DNA of 64,000 bases from Candidatus Melainabacteria bacterium (GTDB taxonomy: Bacteria; Cyanobacteriota; Vampirovibrionia; Obscuribacterales; Obscuribacteraceae), in contig RXJR01000018.1 of NCBI GenBank assembly GCA_003963305.1, positions 124,001-188,000 on the forward strand. Direction: 5' to 3'. A program made the position numbers and the translations under genes. Numbering within the stretch: position 1 is the stretch's first letter; each line of letters starts with the position of its first letter. The notes under the pieces were generated by a model, which searched no databases, was not told where the DNA came from, and saw only the letters and a list, made by a program, of their open reading frames with translations. This document shows positions 1 to 61,045 of this stretch, piece by piece.

Positions 1-482
1 CCGCCGAACAGTGATGCGGAGAGATTGTCAGCGTGACCTTCGTAGCGACAAGATTCGCGTAACAAGTCTGATTTGTCGACAGGTCGCTTGCTGAAGTAGT
101 GGGACGCATAGGCGGCGGCTAGAATGGCTGTAGAGCTGCTTCCCAGCCCTCGTCCAAGTGGAATGTCTGTAGTGATTTCCAGGCGCATGCGGTCGAATTT
201 TTCTTTTTCATCAGTCCAGAGTTCGCCTAGAATGCGATAGGCGAGATTGCTTTTGTCGGTCGTCAGTGCGCAACTGTTGTCGTTTCCGAACGTTATTAAA
301 GGCACGCTCGGATCATTTTTTTTAAGCAGCTTGAATTTGATTTTTGAATGCAGGGTGAGCGCCAGTCCAAGCGTGTCGAATCCGGGTCCGAGGTTGGCTG
401 TGCTGGCGGGCACGCTGACGACAATTTCTTTTTCGACGAGATCAGTCATTTCTGGTTTGAGATCAGACGCAACGAGGGTCAC
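1..482 (-). CDS. thrB: Homoserine kinase, N-terminal part (cut by window edge)
   Basis: Phosphorylates homoserine with ATP to O-phosphohomoserine, the substrate of the threonine synthase encoded just upstream. The visible part shows the GHMP-kinase N-terminal motif PASTANLGPGFD and the glycine/serine-rich ATP loop GRGLGSSSTA. The GTG start at 482 shares bases with the TGA stop of thrC (GTGA) and has a strong AAGGAGG about ten bases upstream. An in-frame ATG at 449 (MTDLVEKEIVV) is the alternative. It is the third gene of a hom-thrC-thrB operon and is probably translationally coupled to thrC. The C-terminal half lies outside the window. Confidence 0.93.
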   Translation of the reverse strand, partial: MTLVASDLKPEMTDLVEKEIVVSVPASTANLGPGFDTLGLALTLHSKIKFKLLKKNDPSVPLITFGNDNSCALTTDKSNLAYRILGELWTDEKEKFDRMRLEITTDIPLGRGLGSSSTAILAAAYASHYFSKRPVDKSDLLRESCRYEGHADNLSASLFG

Positions 483-1543
483 AATCTTAGAACCTCCTTC
501 AATGCCTGGAACGTAGCCGGTACAGGGGTTAAGTCGACTTTGCTCACTTTCAGCGGCGTGTCGGGGTCTTTCAGACCATTACCAGTTAAAACGCAGACAG
601 CGGTTCCCTCACCAGATATGGTGCCTTTTTTGAGGCTTTTGATCAGTCCGGCAAGGCTTGCCGCACTCGAGGGCTCACAGAAGATGCCTTCAGTACGAGC
701 AACTAACTGATAAGCATCGAGAATTTCGTCGTCGGTGACTTCGTCTATGAACCCTTCAGATTCAGACGCTGCTCGCTCAGCTTCTTTCCAGCTGGCAGGA
801 TTGCCTATGCGAATCGCTGTGGCAATTGTTTCCGGGTTCTCGAAAATTCTCTTGTGCACGATTGCCGCCGAGCCGGCCGCTTCGAATCCACACATTTTTG
901 GCAGTGTGTTCGAGCGTCCGCTTGATTTTCCGAGTTTGAAGCCTCGCCAGTACGCACTGATATTCCCGGCATTGCCTACTGGAATGCAGAGATAATCCGG
1001 CGCGCCTTCAAGTTGCTCGATAACCTCGAGACCTGCAGTCTTTTGACCTTCGAGTCTATATGGATTGATCGAGTTGACGATAGTGATGTTGCACTTTTCA
1101 CCGAGTTCTCTGACTAAATCGAGAGCCTGGTCGAAGTTGCCATCCAGGGGAACGACACGCGCGCCGTAAAGTATCGCCTGGGCGAGTTTGCCGAGTGCGA
1201 CTTTGCCGGCAGGCAGAAGCACGTAACACGGCAGTCCGGCCTTAGTCGCGAAAGCTGCAGCTGACGCACTTGTGTTGCCCGTGGAGGCGCAAATAACGGC
1301 GGTGGCTCCTTCTTCCACGGCCTTGGACATTGCCAGGGTCATACCTCTGTCTTTGAAGCTGCCGGTCGGATTGAGACCTTCCAGTTTGAAGTGGATCTGG
1401 AGCTCAGGAAAACCCAGATGTTTGGGAAGATTTACCGCTTTCACCAGCGGCGTATTACCTTCGCCCAGCGAGATGATGGGAGTTTCAGCCGTAATGGGAA
1501 GAAATTCGCGATATTTTTCAATCAGTGCAATTGGTTTAGCCAT
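479..1543 (-). CDS. thrC: Threonine synthase
   Basis: PLP-dependent enzyme converting O-phosphohomoserine to threonine and phosphate in the cytoplasm. The 354 residues match the short bacterial (class II-like fold) threonine synthases. The PLP Schiff-base lysine is in NPTGSFKDRG (about K64), and the phosphate-binding stretch VGNAGNISAYWRG lies near residue 190. The ATG overlaps the TAA stop of hom by one base (TAATG), and the end overlaps the thrB start. All three genes are on the minus strand, so expression is presumably coordinated by coupling. No regulatory leader is visible inside the operon. Confidence 0.97.
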   Translation of the reverse strand: MAKPIALIEKYREFLPITAETPIISLGEGNTPLVKAVNLPKHLGFPELQIHFKLEGLNPTGSFKDRGMTLAMSKAVEEGATAVICASTGNTSASAAAFATKAGLPCYVLLPAGKVALGKLAQAILYGARVVPLDGNFDQALDLVRELGEKCNITIVNSINPYRLEGQKTAGLEVIEQLEGAPDYLCIPVGNAGNISAYWRGFKLGKSSGRSNTLPKMCGFEAAGSAAIVHKRIFENPETIATAIRIGNPASWKEAERAASESEGFIDEVTDDEILDAYQLVARTEGIFCEPSSAASLAGLIKSLKKGTISGEGTAVCVLTGNGLKDPDTPLKVSKVDLTPVPATFQALKEVLRL

Positions 1544-2817
1544 TAGCGACCTGCCGGTTGAAAAATGCGAATCTTACTTTCCAGTTTGCGCAGGAAATCA
1601 CACTTAGCCAGCTCGGCAAGGGCGGTTTCCATTTGCGAGTTCTTCACTTCGTGGGTGAATATGACGATTCTTGCGCCTGATTCTTCTACGCCGCGTTGAA
1701 AAATACTCTGAATGCTGATTTTGTGTTCACCAAATATGGTGCCAATGCGACCGATGACGCCGGGCGTGTCGTTGACGTCGAAACGCAGGTAAAATGGGCA
1801 GCTCCAGTCACCTGGCGCGGCTGTGACGGCCCATTCCGGTTCTATTTCCGGTTGGAAGTAAGTGGCAAAGTCAGGCAGTTGCAATGCGCTGGCCAGATTG
1901 ATGGTGTCTCCCACGATGGCAGAAGCGGTCGGCATCTGACCGGCACCGGGACCGACCATGACGATTTCGCCGACGGCGTCGCCTGATACTACGATGCCGT
2001 TGTTCGAGCCCGATACGGACGCGAGAGCATGATTGAGCGGCACCAACATAGGATGTACGCGCACGTCAATTGCGCCTTTGTCGGCTCGGCGGGTGCTGCC
2101 CACCAGTTTGATGCGATATCCGAATTCTTGAGCCTGAGCCATATCTTCAGCCGAGACGGCGCGAATCCCTTCGCGATAGATTTCCGTGGGCTTTGCAAAT
2201 CGTTGGTAGGAAAGCGCTGACAGAATCGATAATTTGTATGCGACGTCGTGTCCGTCCACATCATTAGTCGGGTCGGCTTCGGCAAAGCCCAACGACTGGG
2301 CTTTCTCCAGTGCCGCCGCGTAACTTTCTTTGTCCTCTTCCATTTTGGAAAGAATGAAATTGGTCGTTCCGTTCAAAATGCCTGTAACGCATGAGAACTT
2401 GTTGGCTTCCAGCCCTTTGCTGATTGTGGAAATCAAGGGCACGCCGCCTGCGACTGAAGCTTCGAAAAATATAGCCACGCCTTTCTGTTTGGCTAACTGA
2501 AAGAGCTCCGGTCCGTGCTTTGCAAGTACTTCTTTGTTGGCTGTGACAATATGTTTGCGTTTGTCGATGGCGCGTTTGATGTAGTCGAGCGCTGGTTGTT
2601 CGCCGCCCATGACCTCAATGAGAATTTCGATCTCGGGGTCGTCAATAACTTCCGCGACGTCTGTGGTCACCGGGCAGGCAGGGCGAACCGTGCGTTCCTT
2701 TTGCAACTCTTTTACTGCGACTTTCTTCAAAGTCAAGTGGCGCTGCTGTTCAAGCAAACGCACTACGCCGGTACCTACGGTACCCAGACCAATCATTCCA
2801 ACTACAACTCTACCCAT
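1543..2817 (-). CDS. hom: Homoserine dehydrogenase with C-terminal ACT domain
   Basis: NAD(P)H-dependent reduction of aspartate semialdehyde to homoserine, the branch point to threonine and methionine. The 424 residues contain an N-terminal Rossmann motif (GLGTVGTG, residues 10-17), the catalytic domain with GILNGTTNFILS and ADPTNDVDG, and a C-terminal ACT domain from about residue 345 (DTPGVIGRIG) that in this family binds threonine for feedback inhibition. It is the first gene of the leftward hom-thrC-thrB operon. The 148-base gap upstream, before the polyketide synthase gene, is the likely place for the operon promoter. Confidence 0.97.
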   Translation of the reverse strand: MGRVVVGMIGLGTVGTGVVRLLEQQRHLTLKKVAVKELQKERTVRPACPVTTDVAEVIDDPEIEILIEVMGGEQPALDYIKRAIDKRKHIVTANKEVLAKHGPELFQLAKQKGVAIFFEASVAGGVPLISTISKGLEANKFSCVTGILNGTTNFILSKMEEDKESYAAALEKAQSLGFAEADPTNDVDGHDVAYKLSILSALSYQRFAKPTEIYREGIRAVSAEDMAQAQEFGYRIKLVGSTRRADKGAIDVRVHPMLVPLNHALASVSGSNNGIVVSGDAVGEIVMVGPGAGQMPTASAIVGDTINLASALQLPDFATYFQPEIEPEWAVTAAPGDWSCPFYLRFDVNDTPGVIGRIGTIFGEHKISIQSIFQRGVEESGARIVIFTHEVKNSQMETALAELAKCDFLRKLESKIRIFQPAGR

Positions 2818-2965: not shown

Positions 2966-4066
2966 TCAGGCGATCAGTGCTGCCTCGATGGTCAGCCCGG
3001 GACCGAATCCCAGCACCACATAGGGAGGCTTTTGCCCGCTTCTTAGCAGGTGTTTGAGGATAAAGAGCACCGTTGGCGATGACATGTTGCCGCACTCCGA
3101 GAGGATTTGTCTTGATGCTTCAAGAGAATCAGCCGGCAAATTGAGTGCGTTTGCCACTGCTTCAAGGATACGTGGACCGCCGGGATGAACGGCCCAGCCG
3201 CTGATCTGGTCGATGCTGAGGTTGTTCTTTCTGAGCCATGTCTCCATGAATCTAGGCAGGTTGGTTTCGATAATCTCGGCGACAGTTTTGTCCAGACTCA
3301 TAACGAAACCGTTATTTCCAATTTTCCAGCTCATGATATTTTCTGTGTTTGGTATTACATATGATGCGGCGTCGGCATACATGCAGGGCGCCCTATTATC
3401 CCGATTTGCCATGGTGCGATTTCCGGTCAGCACCAGTGCAGCCGAACCATCTGCAAATAGTGCGTTTGAAACGACCAGATCTTTTGACCAGCCGTACTGG
3501 AAGTGCATCGAACAAATTTCTGTCGCACAAATAAGCACAATGTTATTCTCTGATTCTGAACAATAGCCATTGGCTGCGCGCAGAGCGTTAAGCGCTCCGT
3601 GGCAGCCCATGAAGCCAATATGCGTGCGCTGCACATCTGGGGTGAGGGACAGAGTTTTAACCAGTTGAATGTCAAAACCGGGAGCGAAGAAACCAGTGCA
3701 AGACACTGTGACTAGATGTGTGATTTCTTTCGCGTTCAGTCGAGCATCGTTTAGAGCTTCCATGCAGGCTCTTGTAGCCAGAGGTCCAGCTTTGGTTTCA
3801 TAGATTGCCATTCGCTCGGCCGTGGATGGACCAGTATCACATGCGGTGCTGAGTGGTTGAAAGAAATTCGCTTCAGGGTGTTGATCGAGTTGCGCTTGCA
3901 GTACTGTGGAGCGTTTCTGCACACCTGACTTTAGATATACTTCTTCCAGAACGCGCATTTGTCGTGGCGTCTGGCAGCACAGATCTTTTGCCAGCACAAG
4001 AGCATCTTCCTGACTGACTATTGCGTCTGGTAGTGCTGTTCCCAAACCGATTATTGTTGACGACAT
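2966..4066 (-). CDS. Type III polyketide synthase (chalcone/alkylresorcinol synthase family)
   Basis: Homodimeric ketosynthase that condenses a starter acyl-CoA with malonyl-CoA units and cyclises the chain. The full catalytic triad is visible: Cys123 in VSCTGFFAPGFD, His294 in AVHPGGPR and Asn327 in ECGNMSSPT. Its 366 residues are typical for bacterial type III PKS. The start overlaps the FAD oxidoreductase gene by 16 bases, and a methyltransferase precedes that, giving an MTase-oxidoreductase-PKS operon. The same three activities make methylated, hydroxylated alkylresorcinols and alkylquinones in Streptomyces (srs genes). The product here is therefore probably a phenolic lipid or alkylpyrone. 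Starter and chain length cannot be read from the sequence. Confidence 0.92.
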   Translation of the reverse strand: MSSTIIGLGTALPDAIVSQEDALVLAKDLCCQTPRQMRVLEEVYLKSGVQKRSTVLQAQLDQHPEANFFQPLSTACDTGPSTAERMAIYETKAGPLATRACMEALNDARLNAKEITHLVTVSCTGFFAPGFDIQLVKTLSLTPDVQRTHIGFMGCHGALNALRAANGYCSESENNIVLICATEICSMHFQYGWSKDLVVSNALFADGSAALVLTGNRTMANRDNRAPCMYADAASYVIPNTENIMSWKIGNNGFVMSLDKTVAEIIETNLPRFMETWLRKNNLSIDQISGWAVHPGGPRILEAVANALNLPADSLEASRQILSECGNMSSPTVLFILKHLLRSGQKPPYVVLGFGPGLTIEAALIA

Positions 4067-5259
4067 AGCTCTGCCCTTATTTCCCCATCAGCTGCAGGTA
4101 TGGTTACCTTGCGGCTTACGTCCTGAATAACTAGATTCGCCAGTGCCGGAAACGAGGCGATTAGCGGTAGTGCACAACGCCTGATTGCGTCTTTTCGCAA
4201 TGCGTGAGCGATGAGGCGGCTTCTCTTCTGTCGAAAAGACAACATCGTTTCATGCTTCTGTTGCCACTTGCGAATCAAGTAAGGCGACCAGCAGTTGATT
4301 GCTTCTGCCGCGAGATCGGCTACTCCAACCGCCGATGTGAGCGCCCATGCGATGCCTTCACCGGTGAAAGGTTCGGCATATCCACAAGCGTCGCCTATGA
4401 CGAATATACGTTCTGCTGCTATTTCTTTGCGCCTGCGGGTCAGTGACTCAGTGCCGTTCCACTGTGCGGTCATCAGAGCTTCGGGCACTGGCAAGCGGCT
4501 GCTTTTGATGATTTCGATGCAAGCCGCAGCCGGACCACCGTACTTTCTGGAATATTGTCTGTCAAGCGCCGCAGCCACATCTATACGCCCGTCTTCCAGT
4601 CTTACCAGTCCGACATAGCCATCGTGTGCGCAGACCATGTAGATGCATCCCGGCTCATAGAAATCTGGTCCTTCATCGATTATTGTTCCGCATCCGAATC
4701 GGGAAGTGGCTTCAGTGACGAAATCCAGCTCGTTAATCTGGTTAAGCGAGTGACCTCCCAGTCCATCGGCTACAAGTACTACTTTGGCGCTGAAGGTCTC
4801 TTTCGCGTAGCCGTTCTGTAATTGAACTATTCTTTCCGATGGTGTTGTCTGCAGGACGGTTGCCGTGGTTTCGGAAAGGAAAGTGACACCACTTCTTATT
4901 GCAGCGTTTGTAAGGGCGTTGTCGAATTGGCTTCTGGATAGAGAAAAGCCGCCCGGAAGTTGCACGTTGGCCTGTTGCTCTTTCTCGAATAATTTTAGTT
5001 TTGACAGTGAAACTGCATTTTGGTCTTGCAGGATATAACCGAGGGAACAGCTTTCGAGAATATTGACTGCGGCTAAATTGATGCAACAACCACATACTTT
5101 TGATCGTGGAAATTTTGCTTTATCGACAAGAAGAACTTTGTTGAATTTCTGTGCCAGGAGATAAGCTGCCAGCGCGCCGGATGGTCCTGCGCCAATGACA
5201 ATGGCGTCCCACTCTTTGCCGATGTCGAGCGGTGATCGTGCCGTATTGAAGTCAGGCAT
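4051..5259 (-). CDS. FAD-dependent oxidoreductase (geranylgeranyl reductase / aromatic hydroxylase-like)
   Basis: A 402-residue flavoprotein of the PHBH/geranylgeranyl-reductase fold. Visible motifs are the N-terminal dinucleotide site VIGAGPSGALAA (about 21-32), a Cys-rich KVCGCCINLAA stretch near residue 55, VADGLGG in the middle, and the second FAD motif VIGDACGYAEPFTGEGI near residue 290. It overlaps the methyltransferase upstream by 8 bases and the type III PKS downstream by 16 bases, so it almost certainly acts on the PKS product. Hydroxylation of a resorcinol ring or a saturation step are both possible. The family assignment is firm and the reaction is inferred from context. Confidence 0.88.
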   Translation of the reverse strand: MPDFNTARSPLDIGKEWDAIVIGAGPSGALAAYLLAQKFNKVLLVDKAKFPRSKVCGCCINLAAVNILESCSLGYILQDQNAVSLSKLKLFEKEQQANVQLPGGFSLSRSQFDNALTNAAIRSGVTFLSETTATVLQTTPSERIVQLQNGYAKETFSAKVVLVADGLGGHSLNQINELDFVTEATSRFGCGTIIDEGPDFYEPGCIYMVCAHDGYVGLVRLEDGRIDVAAALDRQYSRKYGGPAAACIEIIKSSRLPVPEALMTAQWNGTESLTRRRKEIAAERIFVIGDACGYAEPFTGEGIAWALTSAVGVADLAAEAINCWSPYLIRKWQQKHETMLSFRQKRSRLIAHALRKDAIRRCALPLIASFPALANLVIQDVSRKVTIPAADGEIRAELCRQQ

Positions 5260-5956
5260 GACGCTTCCAGGTGAGTGTTTGTCGACAGGGGGGACATTGA
5301 TTCACAACGCTTCCTTTGAGACCGGCTTGCTCTGCCATCTCGAGTAATTCGGAGCTTGTATATGAGCCACGCACAGAGACGGGACCGTCATAGTGCACAA
5401 TCGGTGATCGACTGAACAAGCGCGTTGCAAGCCAGACGAGCGCGTAAGATATCTCGCTGCGTACCAGATCGTTGACGAGCACCAATTGCTTTGCCGCAAC
5501 TGACATTTTTTTGAGCAAATCGGTTACGTCGGAAGGGTCCAGGTGGTGAGTAAACAAGTTTGTCATAACTACATCGAATCCTGGCGGAATCTGATCTTGA
5601 AGAGCGTTGAGCTGAATGAATTCAATTGCAGCACCTTTCTCTTTTGCGTACGAGCTGGCGTATTTTATCGATGATGGGCTGACGTCGGACCCTGTGATTG
5701 CCACATTTAGCTTTGCCGCAATTGCTGTTTTGTAGAGGGCAACCGGAATGTCACCGCCTCCAGTGGCGATGTCGAGGATGCGCAGAGGCGTGCCGTCAGC
5801 ATTTTGCTTTGCCAGAGGGCTTATTTGCTCCCACAGCGAAGCAGCACTTGTGCTGAAGAAATTGAGACGTTCGAGACCTTTTAGAGCTTCCGCATGGCTC
5901 GAATAATCGAGCGCAGGATCATCCATAAGTTCAGCCACGCGTTTGCGGGTTAGCAT
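5252..5956 (-). CDS. SAM-dependent methyltransferase of the type III PKS operon
   Basis: Class I methyltransferase with motif I LDIATGGGDIP and the conserved N-terminal RKRVAELMDDPALD, which is characteristic of methyltransferases next to bacterial type III PKS genes. The preferred start is the ATG at 5956, preceded by AAGG about nine bases away and placing the conserved motif at the extreme N-terminus as in homologs. The longer frame begins with TTG at 6058. First gene of the three-gene operon, overlapping the oxidoreductase by 8 bases. It probably O- or C-methylates the polyketide-derived ring. The operon is divergent from the secreted protein gene at 6159. Confidence 0.86.
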   Translation of the reverse strand: MLTRKRVAELMDDPALDYSSHAEALKGLERLNFFSTSAASLWEQISPLAKQNADGTPLRILDIATGGGDIPVALYKTAIAAKLNVAITGSDVSPSSIKYASSYAKEKGAAIEFIQLNALQDQIPPGFDVVMTNLFTHHLDPSDVTDLLKKMSVAAKQLVLVNDLVRSEISYALVWLATRLFSRSPIVHYDGPVSVRGSYTSSELLEMAEQAGLKGSVVNQCPPCRQTLTWKRHA

Positions 5957-37052: not shown

Positions 37053-38612
37053 TTAGCTGAGTGATTTGGTTGGATCTACCGCTTGACTGCGGGCTGTACC
37101 ACCATCGATTACTTTGCGGTCGCGCTTCAGGGCGTCGGCGATATCGATACCGGTCAGTCCTTTGATCATCATCATGCTCTGTGTTGCAACGTTGAGAACA
37201 TCGTTGGTGACTTTGCTGGCACCGCCGTCGCTTCCAGTTGAAAGTACAGTCATGTTGCCAATCTTCGAGAGCGGTGAAGCAGCAGCGGCAATCATTTCAG
37301 GCAGTTTCTCGATGATCATGCTTGTCATAGCAGCGTCATTATAGAGCTTGTAGGCTTCCGCTTTCTTAGCCATGGCTTCGGCTTCTGCTTGACCTTTGGC
37401 TGCTGTAACGGTAGCTTCGGCAAGACCTTGAGCTCTGGTTGCTTCTGCATGGGCAAGACCCAGGGCTTTGGTGGCTTCGGAGTCTGCCATCGCTTTCAAA
37501 CGAGTGGCATCCGCTTGACCTTGTGCTTGCAGTTTCATCGCTTGAGCGTCTGCTTCGGCAAGTAATCTGCGTTTTTCCTGTTCGGCTTGCGCCATCAAGC
37601 GAATTCTCTGTTGTTCTGCTTCGGCAGGCTTGGTGACTTCGCTTTCGAGAGATACCTGGCGTTTCTGCACTTCAACCTGTTGCAGTTCAACTTCTTTCTG
37701 TGCTTCAACGATTCTGATCTTCTGAGTTTCTTCAACAAGTTTCTGTTGTGTCTGCGCTTTGACGATGTCGTATGCCATGTCTGATGCAGCTTTCTTGTTG
37801 GCGACTTCGCTCTGGAACTGCGCCTGGTTGACCTGGAAGTTTTTGGAAGCTTCGGCAACTCTAGTGTCGGCTAACAGCTTGGCTTTGGCGCCTTCTTCTG
37901 CGGCTTGCGCTTGTGCAATCTGCGCGTCGCGTTGAGCTTGTGCTTGTTGGATTTGAGTTTCTTTGGCTGCGTGGGCAACACCGATGTCGGCGTTTCTTTT
38001 TGCTTCGGCTGTTTGTTGACGACCGAGTGATTCCAAATAACCAACTGTATCTTTGATTTCTTTGATGGTGAACGATACAACGGTCAAACCCATCTTGGCC
38101 AGGTCAGCAAGCGATACTTCTTGAACACGTTGGGCGAATGAGTCGTTGTTTTGTACCAACTCTTCGACTGCCATCGTACCGAGAATGGCTCTCAAGTGAC
38201 CGACCAGTGATTCGTGAGCAATGTTCTTTATTTCTTCTTCCGTCTTGCCGAGGAATTGCTCAGCGGCTGTCGAGATTGAGATTTCGTCGCCTTTGACTTT
38301 TACTTGAGCAACGCCTTCTACGAATATTGGAACACCGTTTTTAGTGATCATCGGCGCTTGTGAGTGGACGTCTATCGTCATCACTTCAAGGCTCAACGTC
38401 GCTTTTTGTTGCACCATCGGCAGCATGACCGCGCCACCACCGACGATGATTTTATAACTTCTTCCGTCCCGCCCAGCGTACATACCGGAGATGATCATCG
38501 CTTCGTTGGGGCTGCACTTTTGGTAGAGGTTAACCATCAGATAGACCATGATGAAAGCTAGCATGACTCCGACGCCTACGGCTATTAGTGAACCGATCTC
38601 TAAACCAAACAT
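37053..38612 (-). CDS. floT: Flotillin (SPFH/band 7 protein)
   Basis: A 519-residue membrane-microdomain scaffold: N-terminal membrane segment (GSLIAVGVGVMLAFIMVYLMV), SPFH domain (about 30-190, SLEVMTIDVHSQAPMITKNGVPIFVEGVAQVKV seen in parts such as VHSQAPMITKNGVPI), then the long Ala/Glu/Gln coiled coil with EA-rich repeats (VAEASKNFQVNQAQF, EATRAQGLAEATVTAAKGQAEAEAM in parts), and a C-terminal part MTVLSTGSDGG. Upstream on the same strand lie two NfeD/OB-fold genes, the usual partners of flotillins. Flotillins organise lipid domains enriched in polyisoprenoid lipids. Confidence 0.95.
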   Translation of the reverse strand: MFGLEIGSLIAVGVGVMLAFIMVYLMVNLYQKCSPNEAMIISGMYAGRDGRSYKIIVGGGAVMLPMVQQKATLSLEVMTIDVHSQAPMITKNGVPIFVEGVAQVKVKGDEISISTAAEQFLGKTEEEIKNIAHESLVGHLRAILGTMAVEELVQNNDSFAQRVQEVSLADLAKMGLTVVSFTIKEIKDTVGYLESLGRQQTAEAKRNADIGVAHAAKETQIQQAQAQRDAQIAQAQAAEEGAKAKLLADTRVAEASKNFQVNQAQFQSEVANKKAASDMAYDIVKAQTQQKLVEETQKIRIVEAQKEVELQQVEVQKRQVSLESEVTKPAEAEQQRIRLMAQAEQEKRRLLAEADAQAMKLQAQGQADATRLKAMADSEATKALGLAHAEATRAQGLAEATVTAAKGQAEAEAMAKKAEAYKLYNDAAMTSMIIEKLPEMIAAAASPLSKIGNMTVLSTGSDGGASKVTNDVLNVATQSMMMIKGLTGIDIADALKRDRKVIDGGTARSQAVDPTKSLS

Positions 38613-58925: not shown

Positions 58926-60044
58926 TTACCTGGAATAGATGGCGATGATATCAGCACCCGTATTATTAAGCGTGCACTGATGCATGCAATCAACGCCAAG
59001 AAGTCCTTTGAATATGTGTGATGTTGTTTCGAGGTAAACGCGTTTTAGACCGCACAGTTGAGCTAGTTCGTCCAGTGAGCGCGGCGAGTAGTATTTGATG
59101 TGATCGAGTTTAAAACTGTAATAGTAATCGCCGAGAATTTCATACTCAAGCGACACCAGATTCGGTGTGCGAATGGCAATCACTCCATTGGCGGTGAGAA
59201 ATTGTTTGAGAATATTGAGCGTCAGCAGCCCATCATCAAGGTGCTCGATGACGTCCCACAGTGTTATCAATTCGATCTTGCCGAGCAGTTCCGGAGCCAT
59301 TGCCGGCAGATCTTCGATTTCACCAAGCAAGCTGGAAAAACCGAACTTTTCGGCGCATATTTCGACTGCATCAGTGGACTGTTCGAGCCCATAATGTTCT
59401 ATTTCAGATTCGTCCAGTGCTTTTCTAAAATATCCGACTGCTGAACCCACATCCAGTGCTGTCTTTACGGGTGGTTTGAGATTGCTTTTGGTGAGCACGA
59501 TACGCAACTGCCGGCGCGCTTTTTCCAGACGCCATTCTTGATCGGCAACATAATTGCGCATCCCCAGGTGCGACTCAGGGGGATCTTGAAAGTATAATTT
59601 GTCGTACTCGACGGAATCTGCCAGCACTTGTTTTTGAGTAGATGCGTCAATGAGCCAGGCAAACTGAAGCTCTGCGTTTCCGACAATGTTGTAAGATTCG
59701 TTGCCGCTGATTGATTCGGCGTACAAAGTGTCTGCCATTGTTCCGTCAAATGCCATTCCGCTGACAGAAAAGTTCGGAGTTTTGTTGTATTCGGTGGGGT
59801 ATTTCAAGCGAAACGCTTCTTTGATGAGGTTGATTTTGTCGCTCGTGTTCAAGGTGTTGAATTTTTCGCCATGAGCATCAACGCAGCTTTCAATCACGGT
59901 TCTGGCGGTGGTTTCATGTATTTCGAGCAGTCTGCAAAAGCCATTATGCCAGTGGTCCCAGTCATCATAGAAAACGACCGTTTCGTTGTGCGTGTAGTAA
60001 ATTCCGGCAGAAGTCTCGTGCCAGACACCTTGTTTGACGAGCAT
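58926..60044 (-). CDS. SAM-dependent methyltransferase with N-terminal extra domain
   Basis: A 372-residue protein: an unrecognised N-terminal region of about 180 residues, then a class I methyltransferase (ALDVGSAVGYFRKALDE as motif I, then LITLWDVIEHLDDG and VIAIRTPN). The WDVIEHL and PN motifs match the Methyltransf_23 group common in glycan and lipid modification clusters. Its ATG overlaps the stop of the next methyltransferase (TAATG), so the two are co-translated and likely act on one pathway. Confidence 0.87.
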   Translation of the reverse strand: MLVKQGVWHETSAGIYYTHNETVVFYDDWDHWHNGFCRLLEIHETTARTVIESCVDAHGEKFNTLNTSDKINLIKEAFRLKYPTEYNKTPNFSVSGMAFDGTMADTLYAESISGNESYNIVGNAELQFAWLIDASTQKQVLADSVEYDKLYFQDPPESHLGMRNYVADQEWRLEKARRQLRIVLTKSNLKPPVKTALDVGSAVGYFRKALDESEIEHYGLEQSTDAVEICAEKFGFSSLLGEIEDLPAMAPELLGKIELITLWDVIEHLDDGLLTLNILKQFLTANGVIAIRTPNLVSLEYEILGDYYYSFKLDHIKYYSPRSLDELAQLCGLKRVYLETTSHIFKGLLGVDCMHQCTLNNTGADIIAIYSR

Positions 60045-61045
60045 TATCGACCTCGGTCTGGTTTATGAAAAGCAACGCCCATGTTTGATGTTTGACCGGT
60101 GGTTGCCTTGATCAAAGTATCTAAGCCGGCAAAGGAGGCATTGCGAACCAGGTTCGGCATGTTTGTTCTGGCCCAGTCAATGGGCGGGAAAAGCGTGTCT
60201 GCATATTTGGAAAGCAATGGATTTTCTTTCAGCATTGAATGGAAAGTCCAGACCCAGAAGATAGCATTTGGTTCGTATACTATTTTTACCAGTTCGAAGC
60301 CGGTGATTTGCGCCAGTTTTTCGACGGAGCGCCGGTCGTAAAAGACCCAGTGCCGTGGAAAGTGGTAAGCGCCCCAGTGTTTGTTTCGAAAGATCCTGGC
60401 GTCTAGTGACTCTATATTTGGTGTCCAGAACCAGAAAATGCCGCCTGGTTTTAACAGTCGAAAGACTTTTTCAGTGAAGGCTCTCGGGTCTGGAACGTGC
60501 TCGATGACGTGACTGGCCCAGACGAAGTCGAAATGTCCTTCCGGAATATCTATGTCTTCGAATCTTCCGGCATAAACTGTGTGCCCCTGTGCTCGTGCCT
60601 TGCTGACAGCCTCTTCGTTCAGGTCCACACCAAATGTTTCTACGTCGTGCGTTCTGACTTTGCGGAACCAGTTGAGGATGTGACCGTCGGCGCATCCTAT
60701 GTCGAGCACCCGTAGTTTGTCTCCTTTGCAGAAGCTCAAGACATATTCCAGCCCTGCCAGAATTTTTGAATATCTGTATTTGTAGTAAAAATTTTGTTTC
60801 TGTGAATCGTCGTAATTTTCTTCAATTGCGTAAGCGTAGTAGTTGGGCGGATAGATTGTGCCCAACTCGCTTACATCAGGTCTTGGGTTCAGGTAAACCA
60901 GTCCACAGTCTGTGCATCGAACCACATTGAAGGTATCGTCTGTGGTGTTATCGTACTCATGCTCGCGCCCTACGGTAACAAGCTCGTGCTTATTCGAGCC
61001 GCAGTTATTGCAAGTGGTGTCGACCTTTCGTATTCCAGACTTCAT
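60044..61045 (-). CDS. SAM-dependent methyltransferase with N-terminal zinc-finger-like motif
   Basis: A 333-residue protein: N-terminal Cys pairs (CNNC ... CTDCG, residues about 12-46) as in C-methyltransferases of sugar pathways, then motif I VLDIGCADGHILNWF, VWASHVIEHVPDP and GGIFWFWTPN. The Cys4 motif plus Methyltransf_23-like core suggests a nucleotide-sugar or lipid-linked sugar substrate. First gene of a coupled methyltransferase pair; no glycosyltransferases are adjacent. Confidence 0.87.
   Translation of the reverse strand: MKSGIRKVDTTCNNCGSNKHELVTVGREHEYDNTTDDTFNVVRCTDCGLVYLNPRPDVSELGTIYPPNYYAYAIEENYDDSQKQNFYYKYRYSKILAGLEYVLSFCKGDKLRVLDIGCADGHILNWFRKVRTHDVETFGVDLNEEAVSKARAQGHTVYAGRFEDIDIPEGHFDFVWASHVIEHVPDPRAFTEKVFRLLKPGGIFWFWTPNIESLDARIFRNKHWGAYHFPRHWVFYDRRSVEKLAQITGFELVKIVYEPNAIFWVWTFHSMLKENPLLSKYADTLFPPIDWARTNMPNLVRNASFAGLDTLIKATTGQTSNMGVAFHKPDRGR

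What the first reader, a model, noticed from the sequence alone, without database searches (positions are those of the whole stretch)
2966..5956. Compact type III PKS operon: methyltransferase, FAD oxidoreductase, polyketide synthase
Three genes overlap by 8 and 16 bases and encode the same set of activities as the Streptomyces srs phenolic-lipid genes. The PKS triad Cys123/His294/Asn327 is intact. In a lineage with futalosine menaquinone, an alkylresorcinol- or alkylquinone-type membrane lipid would be notable, and a flotillin locus lies on the same chromosome segment. The product is not predictable from sequence.
Basis: partly seen in the sequence, partly recalled or inferred. Interest (0 to 1): 0.65.

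Follow-up and report, generated by a model that had tools for sequence, protein, structure and literature searches.

The report
Hierridin-type alkylresorcinol operon in Obscuribacterales
Three overlapping genes in a non-photosynthetic relative of the cyanobacteria form the same methyltransferase, flavoenzyme and polyketide-synthase operon that makes hierridin-type phenolic lipids in ocean cyanobacteria and planctomycetes; it is a new host for a known pathway rather than a new kind of system.

Summary
On the minus strand, a class I methyltransferase (5252-5956), an FAD oxidoreductase (4051-5259) and a type III PKS (2966-4066) overlap by 8 and 16 bases, and the PKS triad C123/H294/N327 is intact. 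The closest known system is not Streptomyces srs, whose methyltransferase SrsB is of the unrelated ICMT type. It is the hidABC (hierridin) operon of picocyanobacteria and its planctomycete counterpart, with the same gene order and all three proteins homologous. The genome belongs to Candidatus Obscuribacterales ('Melainabacteria'), where 18 of 53 genomes carry both the methyltransferase and the hid-type PKS. Planctomycete members of this PKS clade make 5-pentadecyl- and 5-heptadecylresorcinol when expressed heterologously (PMC10896814), so the core product is predictable: a C15/C17 5-alkylresorcinol, then methylated and probably ring-oxidised. Methylation site, flavoenzyme reaction and biological role are not shown. 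Obscuribacterales operons form one clade inside a planctomycete-rich tree and picocyanobacterial operons another, so shared inheritance within Cyanobacteriota is not favoured (AU p = 0.0003 on a careful 38-row tree, but 0.11 on a 61-row quick tree). It is a new member of a known kind, in a lineage for which I found no report.

The parts
5252..5956 (-). HidA-type class I SAM-dependent methyltransferase (234 aa), first gene of the operon; NCBIfam NF004851/PRK06202-like
   Evidence: Pfam PF13649 43.8 bits; NF004851 216.8 bits against a cut-off of 243; start codon supported by homologue N-termini R..ELMDDP
4051..5259 (-). HidB-type FAD-dependent oxidoreductase (402 aa), second gene, overlaps the first by 8 bases
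   Evidence: PF01494 50.7 bits; TIGR02032 GG-reductase superfamily 116 bits, below its cut-off of 158.8; conserved FPRxKxCGxC, GYxG and GDAxGYxEPxTGEG motifs; model pLDDT 91, fold of flavin monooxygenases, halogenases and GG reductases
2966..4066 (-). HidC-type type III polyketide synthase (366 aa), last gene, overlaps the second by 16 bases; catalytic Cys123, His294, Asn327
   Evidence: PF00195 91.1 and PF02797 88.1 bits; triad invariant; model pLDDT 91, TM 0.84-0.89 to type III PKSs; in the hid clade

Best explanation
A hidABC-type (hierridin-type) phenolic-lipid operon resident in Candidatus Obscuribacterales. The PKS loads a long-chain acyl thioester (about C16-C18), adds three malonyl units and closes the ring by C2-C7 aldol condensation to a 5-alkylresorcinol. 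The class I methyltransferase then methylates the ring, on carbon or oxygen, and the FAD enzyme most likely hydroxylates it. The result would be a methylated alkyl-hydroquinone or methoxyphenol lipid. Shown: gene set, order, catalytic residues, folds, homology and phylogenetic placement. Inferred from characterised relatives: the alkylresorcinol core. Inferred more weakly: order of tailoring, methylation site, hydroxylation, and membrane location.
For: Same order and strand (MT>FAD>PKS) in 80 of 130 fetched loci, including 59 of the 80 named loci from Planctomycetota, Synechococcus, Acidobacteria, Hydrogenedentota and Obscuribacterales. The methyltransferase and hid-type PKS co-occur in 18 of 53 genomes of the order, with one of each found alone apart from a fragment (Fisher p about 5e-11). 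The oxidoreductase is present in all 8 genomes tested that have the PKS and in none of the 5 without the hid-type PKS. The PKS lies in a 98% SH-aLRT clade with the picocyanobacterial PKSs and with those of Rhodopirellula baltica, Gimesia and Stieleria. Published: PKSs of R. baltica, G. maris and S. maiorica give 5-pentadecyl/heptadecylresorcinols in C. glutamicum, and the hidABC order is identical (PMC10896814). hidA/B/C = methyltransferase/oxidoreductase/PKS, with product hierridin B (PMC8086630; PMC10896814).
Against: No product is known from any Obscuribacterales organism. Identity to the planctomycete PKSs of the expressed genera is only about 44-49%. Two other planctomycete type III PKSs that are not in such operons gave no product in the same study. 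The G. maris methyltransferase seemed to C-methylate whereas HidA O-methylates, so decoration cannot be transferred. The oxidoreductase of G. maris had no detected effect in C. glutamicum.
Confidence: 0.88

Rival explanations
1. A true srsABC-type phenolic-lipid operon: alkylresorcylic acid made by an SrsA-like PKS, decarboxylative methylation by SrsB, hydroxylation by SrsC.
For: Same three classes of activity and a compact operon; alkylresorcinol-type product expected in both.
Against: SrsB is ICMT-type (PMC6669644); the window methyltransferase is class I with no ICMT match. In the published tree SrsA is in clade 2.22 and HidC in clade 3.222 (PMC8086630).
Confidence: 0.04
2. Same operon, but the PKS makes alkylpyrones by lactonisation, and the partner enzymes tailor the pyrone.
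For: Best solved-sequence matches include pyrone synthases PKS18 and PKS11; type III PKSs often make both.
Against: It groups with picocyanobacterial and planctomycete PKSs known to give resorcinols (PMC10896814).
Confidence: 0.06
3. The FAD enzyme is a C=C reductase (geranylgeranyl-reductase-like) or a halogenase, so the product is a reduced or halogenated phenolic lipid and not a hydroxylated one. (This is a variant of the best explanation, differing only in the flavoenzyme step.)
For: Best curated family is the GG-reductase superfamily (TIGR02032, below its cut-off). Best profile match to solved sequences is a digeranylgeranylglycerophospholipid reductase. Halogenases are among the top fold matches. 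Hierridin C is chlorinated by an unknown enzyme (PMC8086630).
Against: The halogenase WxWxIP stretch seen in CmlS (WVWMIP) is YVGLVR here and GYxG in all 29 relatives aligned. Monooxygenases are similarly close by fold. Hierridin B, the product of the only hid operon with a known compound, carries an added ring hydroxyl (PMC10896814).
Confidence: 0.2

Closest known systems
hidABC hierridin operon of Cyanobium sp. LEGE 06113 and other picocyanobacteria
   Same: Identical gene order methyltransferase>oxidoreductase>type III PKS; all three proteins homologous to Synechococcus/Cyanobiaceae-like operons (PKS about 41-46%, FAD 35-40%, MT 39-53% by tblastn); same PKS superclade.
   Different: Obscuribacterales operons form their own clade, not sister to the picocyanobacterial one. 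The host is non-photosynthetic. The product and the O- versus C-methylation are unknown.
Planctomycetota MT-oxidoreductase-type III PKS operon (Gimesia maris, Rhodopirellula baltica; Milke et al. 2024)
   Same: Same order, all three homologous (R. baltica locus L076: PKS 45%, MT 41%, FAD 34%; Gimesia loci similar), often overlapping start/stop; nearest relatives of the Obscuribacterales clade are planctomycetes or unassigned bins.
   Different: Different phylum. In planctomycetes the PKS products were shown by heterologous expression; here nothing is shown.
Streptomyces griseus srsABC
   Same: Type III PKS, methyltransferase and flavin monooxygenase making methylated, oxidised alkylresorcinols.
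   Different: Methyltransferase of an unrelated family (ICMT) and, in the published tree, a different PKS clade.
Rearranged cyanobacterial hidC>hidA>hidB-like clusters (described by Larsen et al. 2021; here L035, L038, L041) and the Deinococcus radiodurans plasmid set (L133)
   Same: The same three kinds of gene.
   Different: Different order and only distant PKSs (33-37%), outside the 98% hid clade.

Membership tests
hidABC (hierridin-type) operon | Order methyltransferase > FAD oxidoreductase > type III PKS on one strand | tested here: met
hidABC (hierridin-type) operon | Each of the three proteins homologous to its counterpart in picocyanobacterial and planctomycete operons | tested here: met
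hidABC (hierridin-type) operon | PKS falls in the clade of HidC-type enzymes | tested here: met
   98% SH-aLRT clade of 96 rows with Synechococcus and Planctomycetota PKSs. The HidC sequence of Cyanobium LEGE 06113 itself was not in hand; Synechococcus and related operons stood in for it.
hidABC (hierridin-type) operon | Catalytic Cys-His-Asn triad | tested here: met
   C123, H294, N327
hidABC (hierridin-type) operon | Product is a methylated, ring-hydroxylated 5-alkylresorcinol | not testable with these tools
   needs expression and mass spectrometry
srsABC operon | Methyltransferase of the SrsB (isoprenylcysteine carboxyl methyltransferase) family | tested here: not met
   only class I methyltransferase families match; SrsB family from PMC6669644
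srsABC operon | PKS of the SrsA clade | tested here: inconclusive
   SrsA itself was not in the tree; the published tree separates SrsA and HidC
Flavin-dependent halogenase (FAD protein) | WxWxIP motif | tested here: not met
   YVGLVR at that position; GYxG in 29 relatives
Geranylgeranyl reductase family (FAD protein) | TIGR02032 score above the curated cut-off | tested here: not met
   116.3 against 158.8 bits; related but not a confident member
DpgA (3,5-dihydroxyphenylacetyl-CoA synthase) | NF042429 score above cut-off | tested here: not met
   163.6 against 425 bits

The most novel reading that the evidence does not exclude
The operon makes an alkylated benzoquinone/hydroquinone that works as a second membrane redox carrier beside futalosine-pathway menaquinone in Obscuribacterales. 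It reached this non-photosynthetic sister lineage of the cyanobacteria from planctomycete-like donors, separately from the picocyanobacterial transfer.
Probability: 0.1. Interest if true: 0.6.

Novelty: new member of a known kind. Interest (0 to 1): 0.32.

Why it matters
It extends the hierridin-type pathway to a third major lineage and shows that the three genes are kept as one unit there. It gives a concrete, testable product prediction for organisms that are little cultured. The tree suggests that the two lineages of Cyanobacteriota that carry this form of the pathway did not inherit it from a common cyanobacterial ancestor, which bears on earlier arguments about cyanobacterial origin and transfer of type III PKSs.

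Tried and rejected
The srs assignment was rejected on the methyltransferase family. A halogenase reading of the flavoenzyme was rejected on the missing WxWxIP. Recent acquisition by this genome was considered: GC of the operon (0.507) equals that of the window (0.503), neighbours hyp319/EamA are kept next to the operon in L051, and threonine synthase/homoserine dehydrogenase lie within a few kb of it in L056 and L092, so the locus looks long resident; no sign of recent transfer. Promoter and terminator scans gave no more sites than shuffles, so transcript limits are not determined. A Streptomyces plasmid locus (L131) brought in as a possible srs reference turned out to have an MMPL transporter next door and no partner genes homologous to those here, so it was no use as a reference. 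No paper linking Melainabacteria or Obscuribacter to this operon was found; subscription journals are largely missing from the library, so absence of a report is not proven.

Full report
What is there. Three genes on the minus strand read in the order methyltransferase (5252-5956), FAD oxidoreductase (4051-5259), type III polyketide synthase (2966-4066), with overlaps of 8 and 16 bases. Pfam gives PF13649, PF01494 and PF00195+PF02797. No curated NCBIfam model is reached above its cut-off. Nearest are NF004851 for the methyltransferase (216.8 of 243 bits), the geranylgeranyl reductase superfamily for the FAD protein (116 of 158.8) and DpgA for the PKS (163.6 of 425). The PKS triad C123/H294/N327 is invariant in homologues. 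AlphaFold models of the PKS and the FAD protein are confident (mean pLDDT 91) and match type III PKSs (TM 0.84-0.89) and the flavin monooxygenase/halogenase/reductase fold (TM about 0.65-0.78).

Which organism. The window is part of a 7.48 Mb, 44-contig genome. The nearest named relatives of the PKS (up to 65-66% identity) are Candidatus Melainabacteria and Candidatus Obscuribacter records, so the host is taken to be in Candidatus Obscuribacterales. Two MqnA/MqnD-family genes support the futalosine remark, and a flotillin gene lies at 37053-38612; neither is linked to the operon by any evidence.

Conservation of the unit. In 130 fetched loci the three genes keep the order MT>FAD>PKS on one strand in 80, mostly with gaps from -20 to +60 bases. 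Among the 80 named loci of the genome collection it is 59; some of the rest are cut by contig ends, some have the PKS alone, one has PKS>MT>FAD and three have a split strand. In the order, 53 genomes were searched: the methyltransferase is found in 19 and a full hid-type PKS in 19, with 18 in common (Fisher p about 5e-11). One genome has the PKS without the methyltransferase (G345), one only a PKS fragment (G333), and one has the methyltransferase plus two distant PKSs (G009). The oxidoreductase is present in all eight genomes tested that have the PKS and absent in the five without the hid-type PKS. The operon is patchy: a same-genus genome, 87% complete, lacks it (G001). Presence leans to large genomes.

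Comparison with known systems. Larsen et al. [quoted passage not shown] Milke et al. 2024 (PMC10896814) found the same operon for 58 of 96 planctomycete type III PKS genes. They showed that PKSs of G. maris, R. baltica and S. maiorica make 5-pentadecyl- and/or 5-heptadecylresorcinol in C. glutamicum, and that adding the G. maris methyltransferase and oxidoreductase gave a singly, probably carbon-methylated product. Hierridin B is hydroxylated at C4 and O-methylated at C1 and C3 of a 5-alkylresorcinol. The window operon is a member of this kind by order, homology and PKS clade. It is not an srs operon: SrsB is an isoprenylcysteine carboxyl methyltransferase type protein (PMC6669644), and the window methyltransferase is class I.

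Phylogeny. In a 117-row PKS tree the Obscuribacterales enzymes form one clade (SH-aLRT 98) inside a 96-row hid clade (98) made up mainly of Planctomycetota; the picocyanobacterial enzymes form another group inside it. Concatenation of the three proteins gives the same: Obscuribacterales 98, picocyanobacteria 99 and nested with planctomycetes. A careful 38-row tree gives 100/100 for Obscuribacterales, 100/100 for their union with three planctomycete or unassigned rows, and 95/97 for picocyanobacteria with planctomycetes and an unassigned bin. Holding Obscuribacterales and picocyanobacteria together is rejected on that tree (p 0.0003) but not on the 61-row quick tree with more long branches (p 0.11). 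The group was tested after the first tree had been seen, and rows were dropped for the second tree. I therefore call separate acquisition favoured, not shown. A hid-type operon also occurs on a plasmid of Paludisphaera borealis, which gives a plausible vehicle. In the window itself the operon has ordinary GC and its neighbours are partly shared with relatives, so it is not a recent arrival.

Mechanism. Long-chain acyl thioester plus three malonyl-CoA, C2-C7 aldol ring closure to a 5-alkylresorcinol (inferred from characterised relatives); methyl transfer from SAM (inferred, site unknown); oxidation by the FAD protein, most likely ring hydroxylation (inferred from hierridin B and the fold; halogenation unlikely because the WxWxIP stretch is missing; double-bond reduction not excluded). 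Function in the cell is unknown. In S. maiorica, deletion of the PKS gave no growth or ampicillin phenotype.

Verdict. It is a new taxonomic occurrence of a known pathway, with a modest evolutionary point attached.

Noticed in passing
[quoted passage not shown]
   Followed up: partly
L133 (Deinococcus radiodurans plasmid) and L135 (Psychrobacter urativorans plasmid): Distant type III PKSs (36-37%) stand next to class I methyltransferase and oxidoreductase genes in other orders (PKS>MT>FAD; PKS opposite to MT>FAD), so the gene trio has been reshuffled more than once.
   Followed up: no
G015:C75:147475-148314 and G009:C170, C275: Some Obscuribacterales genomes carry further, distant type III PKSs (32-35% identity) that are not hid-type; the PKS of L011 (G009) has no hid partner genes in the stretch fetched.
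   Followed up: no
L101, L106, L107, L114: A planctomycete subgroup has about 2.5 kb of extra sequence between the oxidoreductase and PKS genes; its content was not examined.
   Followed up: no
L056 and L092 versus window 479-2817: Threonine synthase and homoserine dehydrogenase genes lie within a few kb of the operon in other Obscuribacterales-type genomes too, but inverted, which suggests a long-resident locus with local rearrangement.
   Followed up: partly
window 58926-61045: Two adjacent, overlapping class I methyltransferase genes next to a TPR protein; unrelated to the finding.
   Followed up: no
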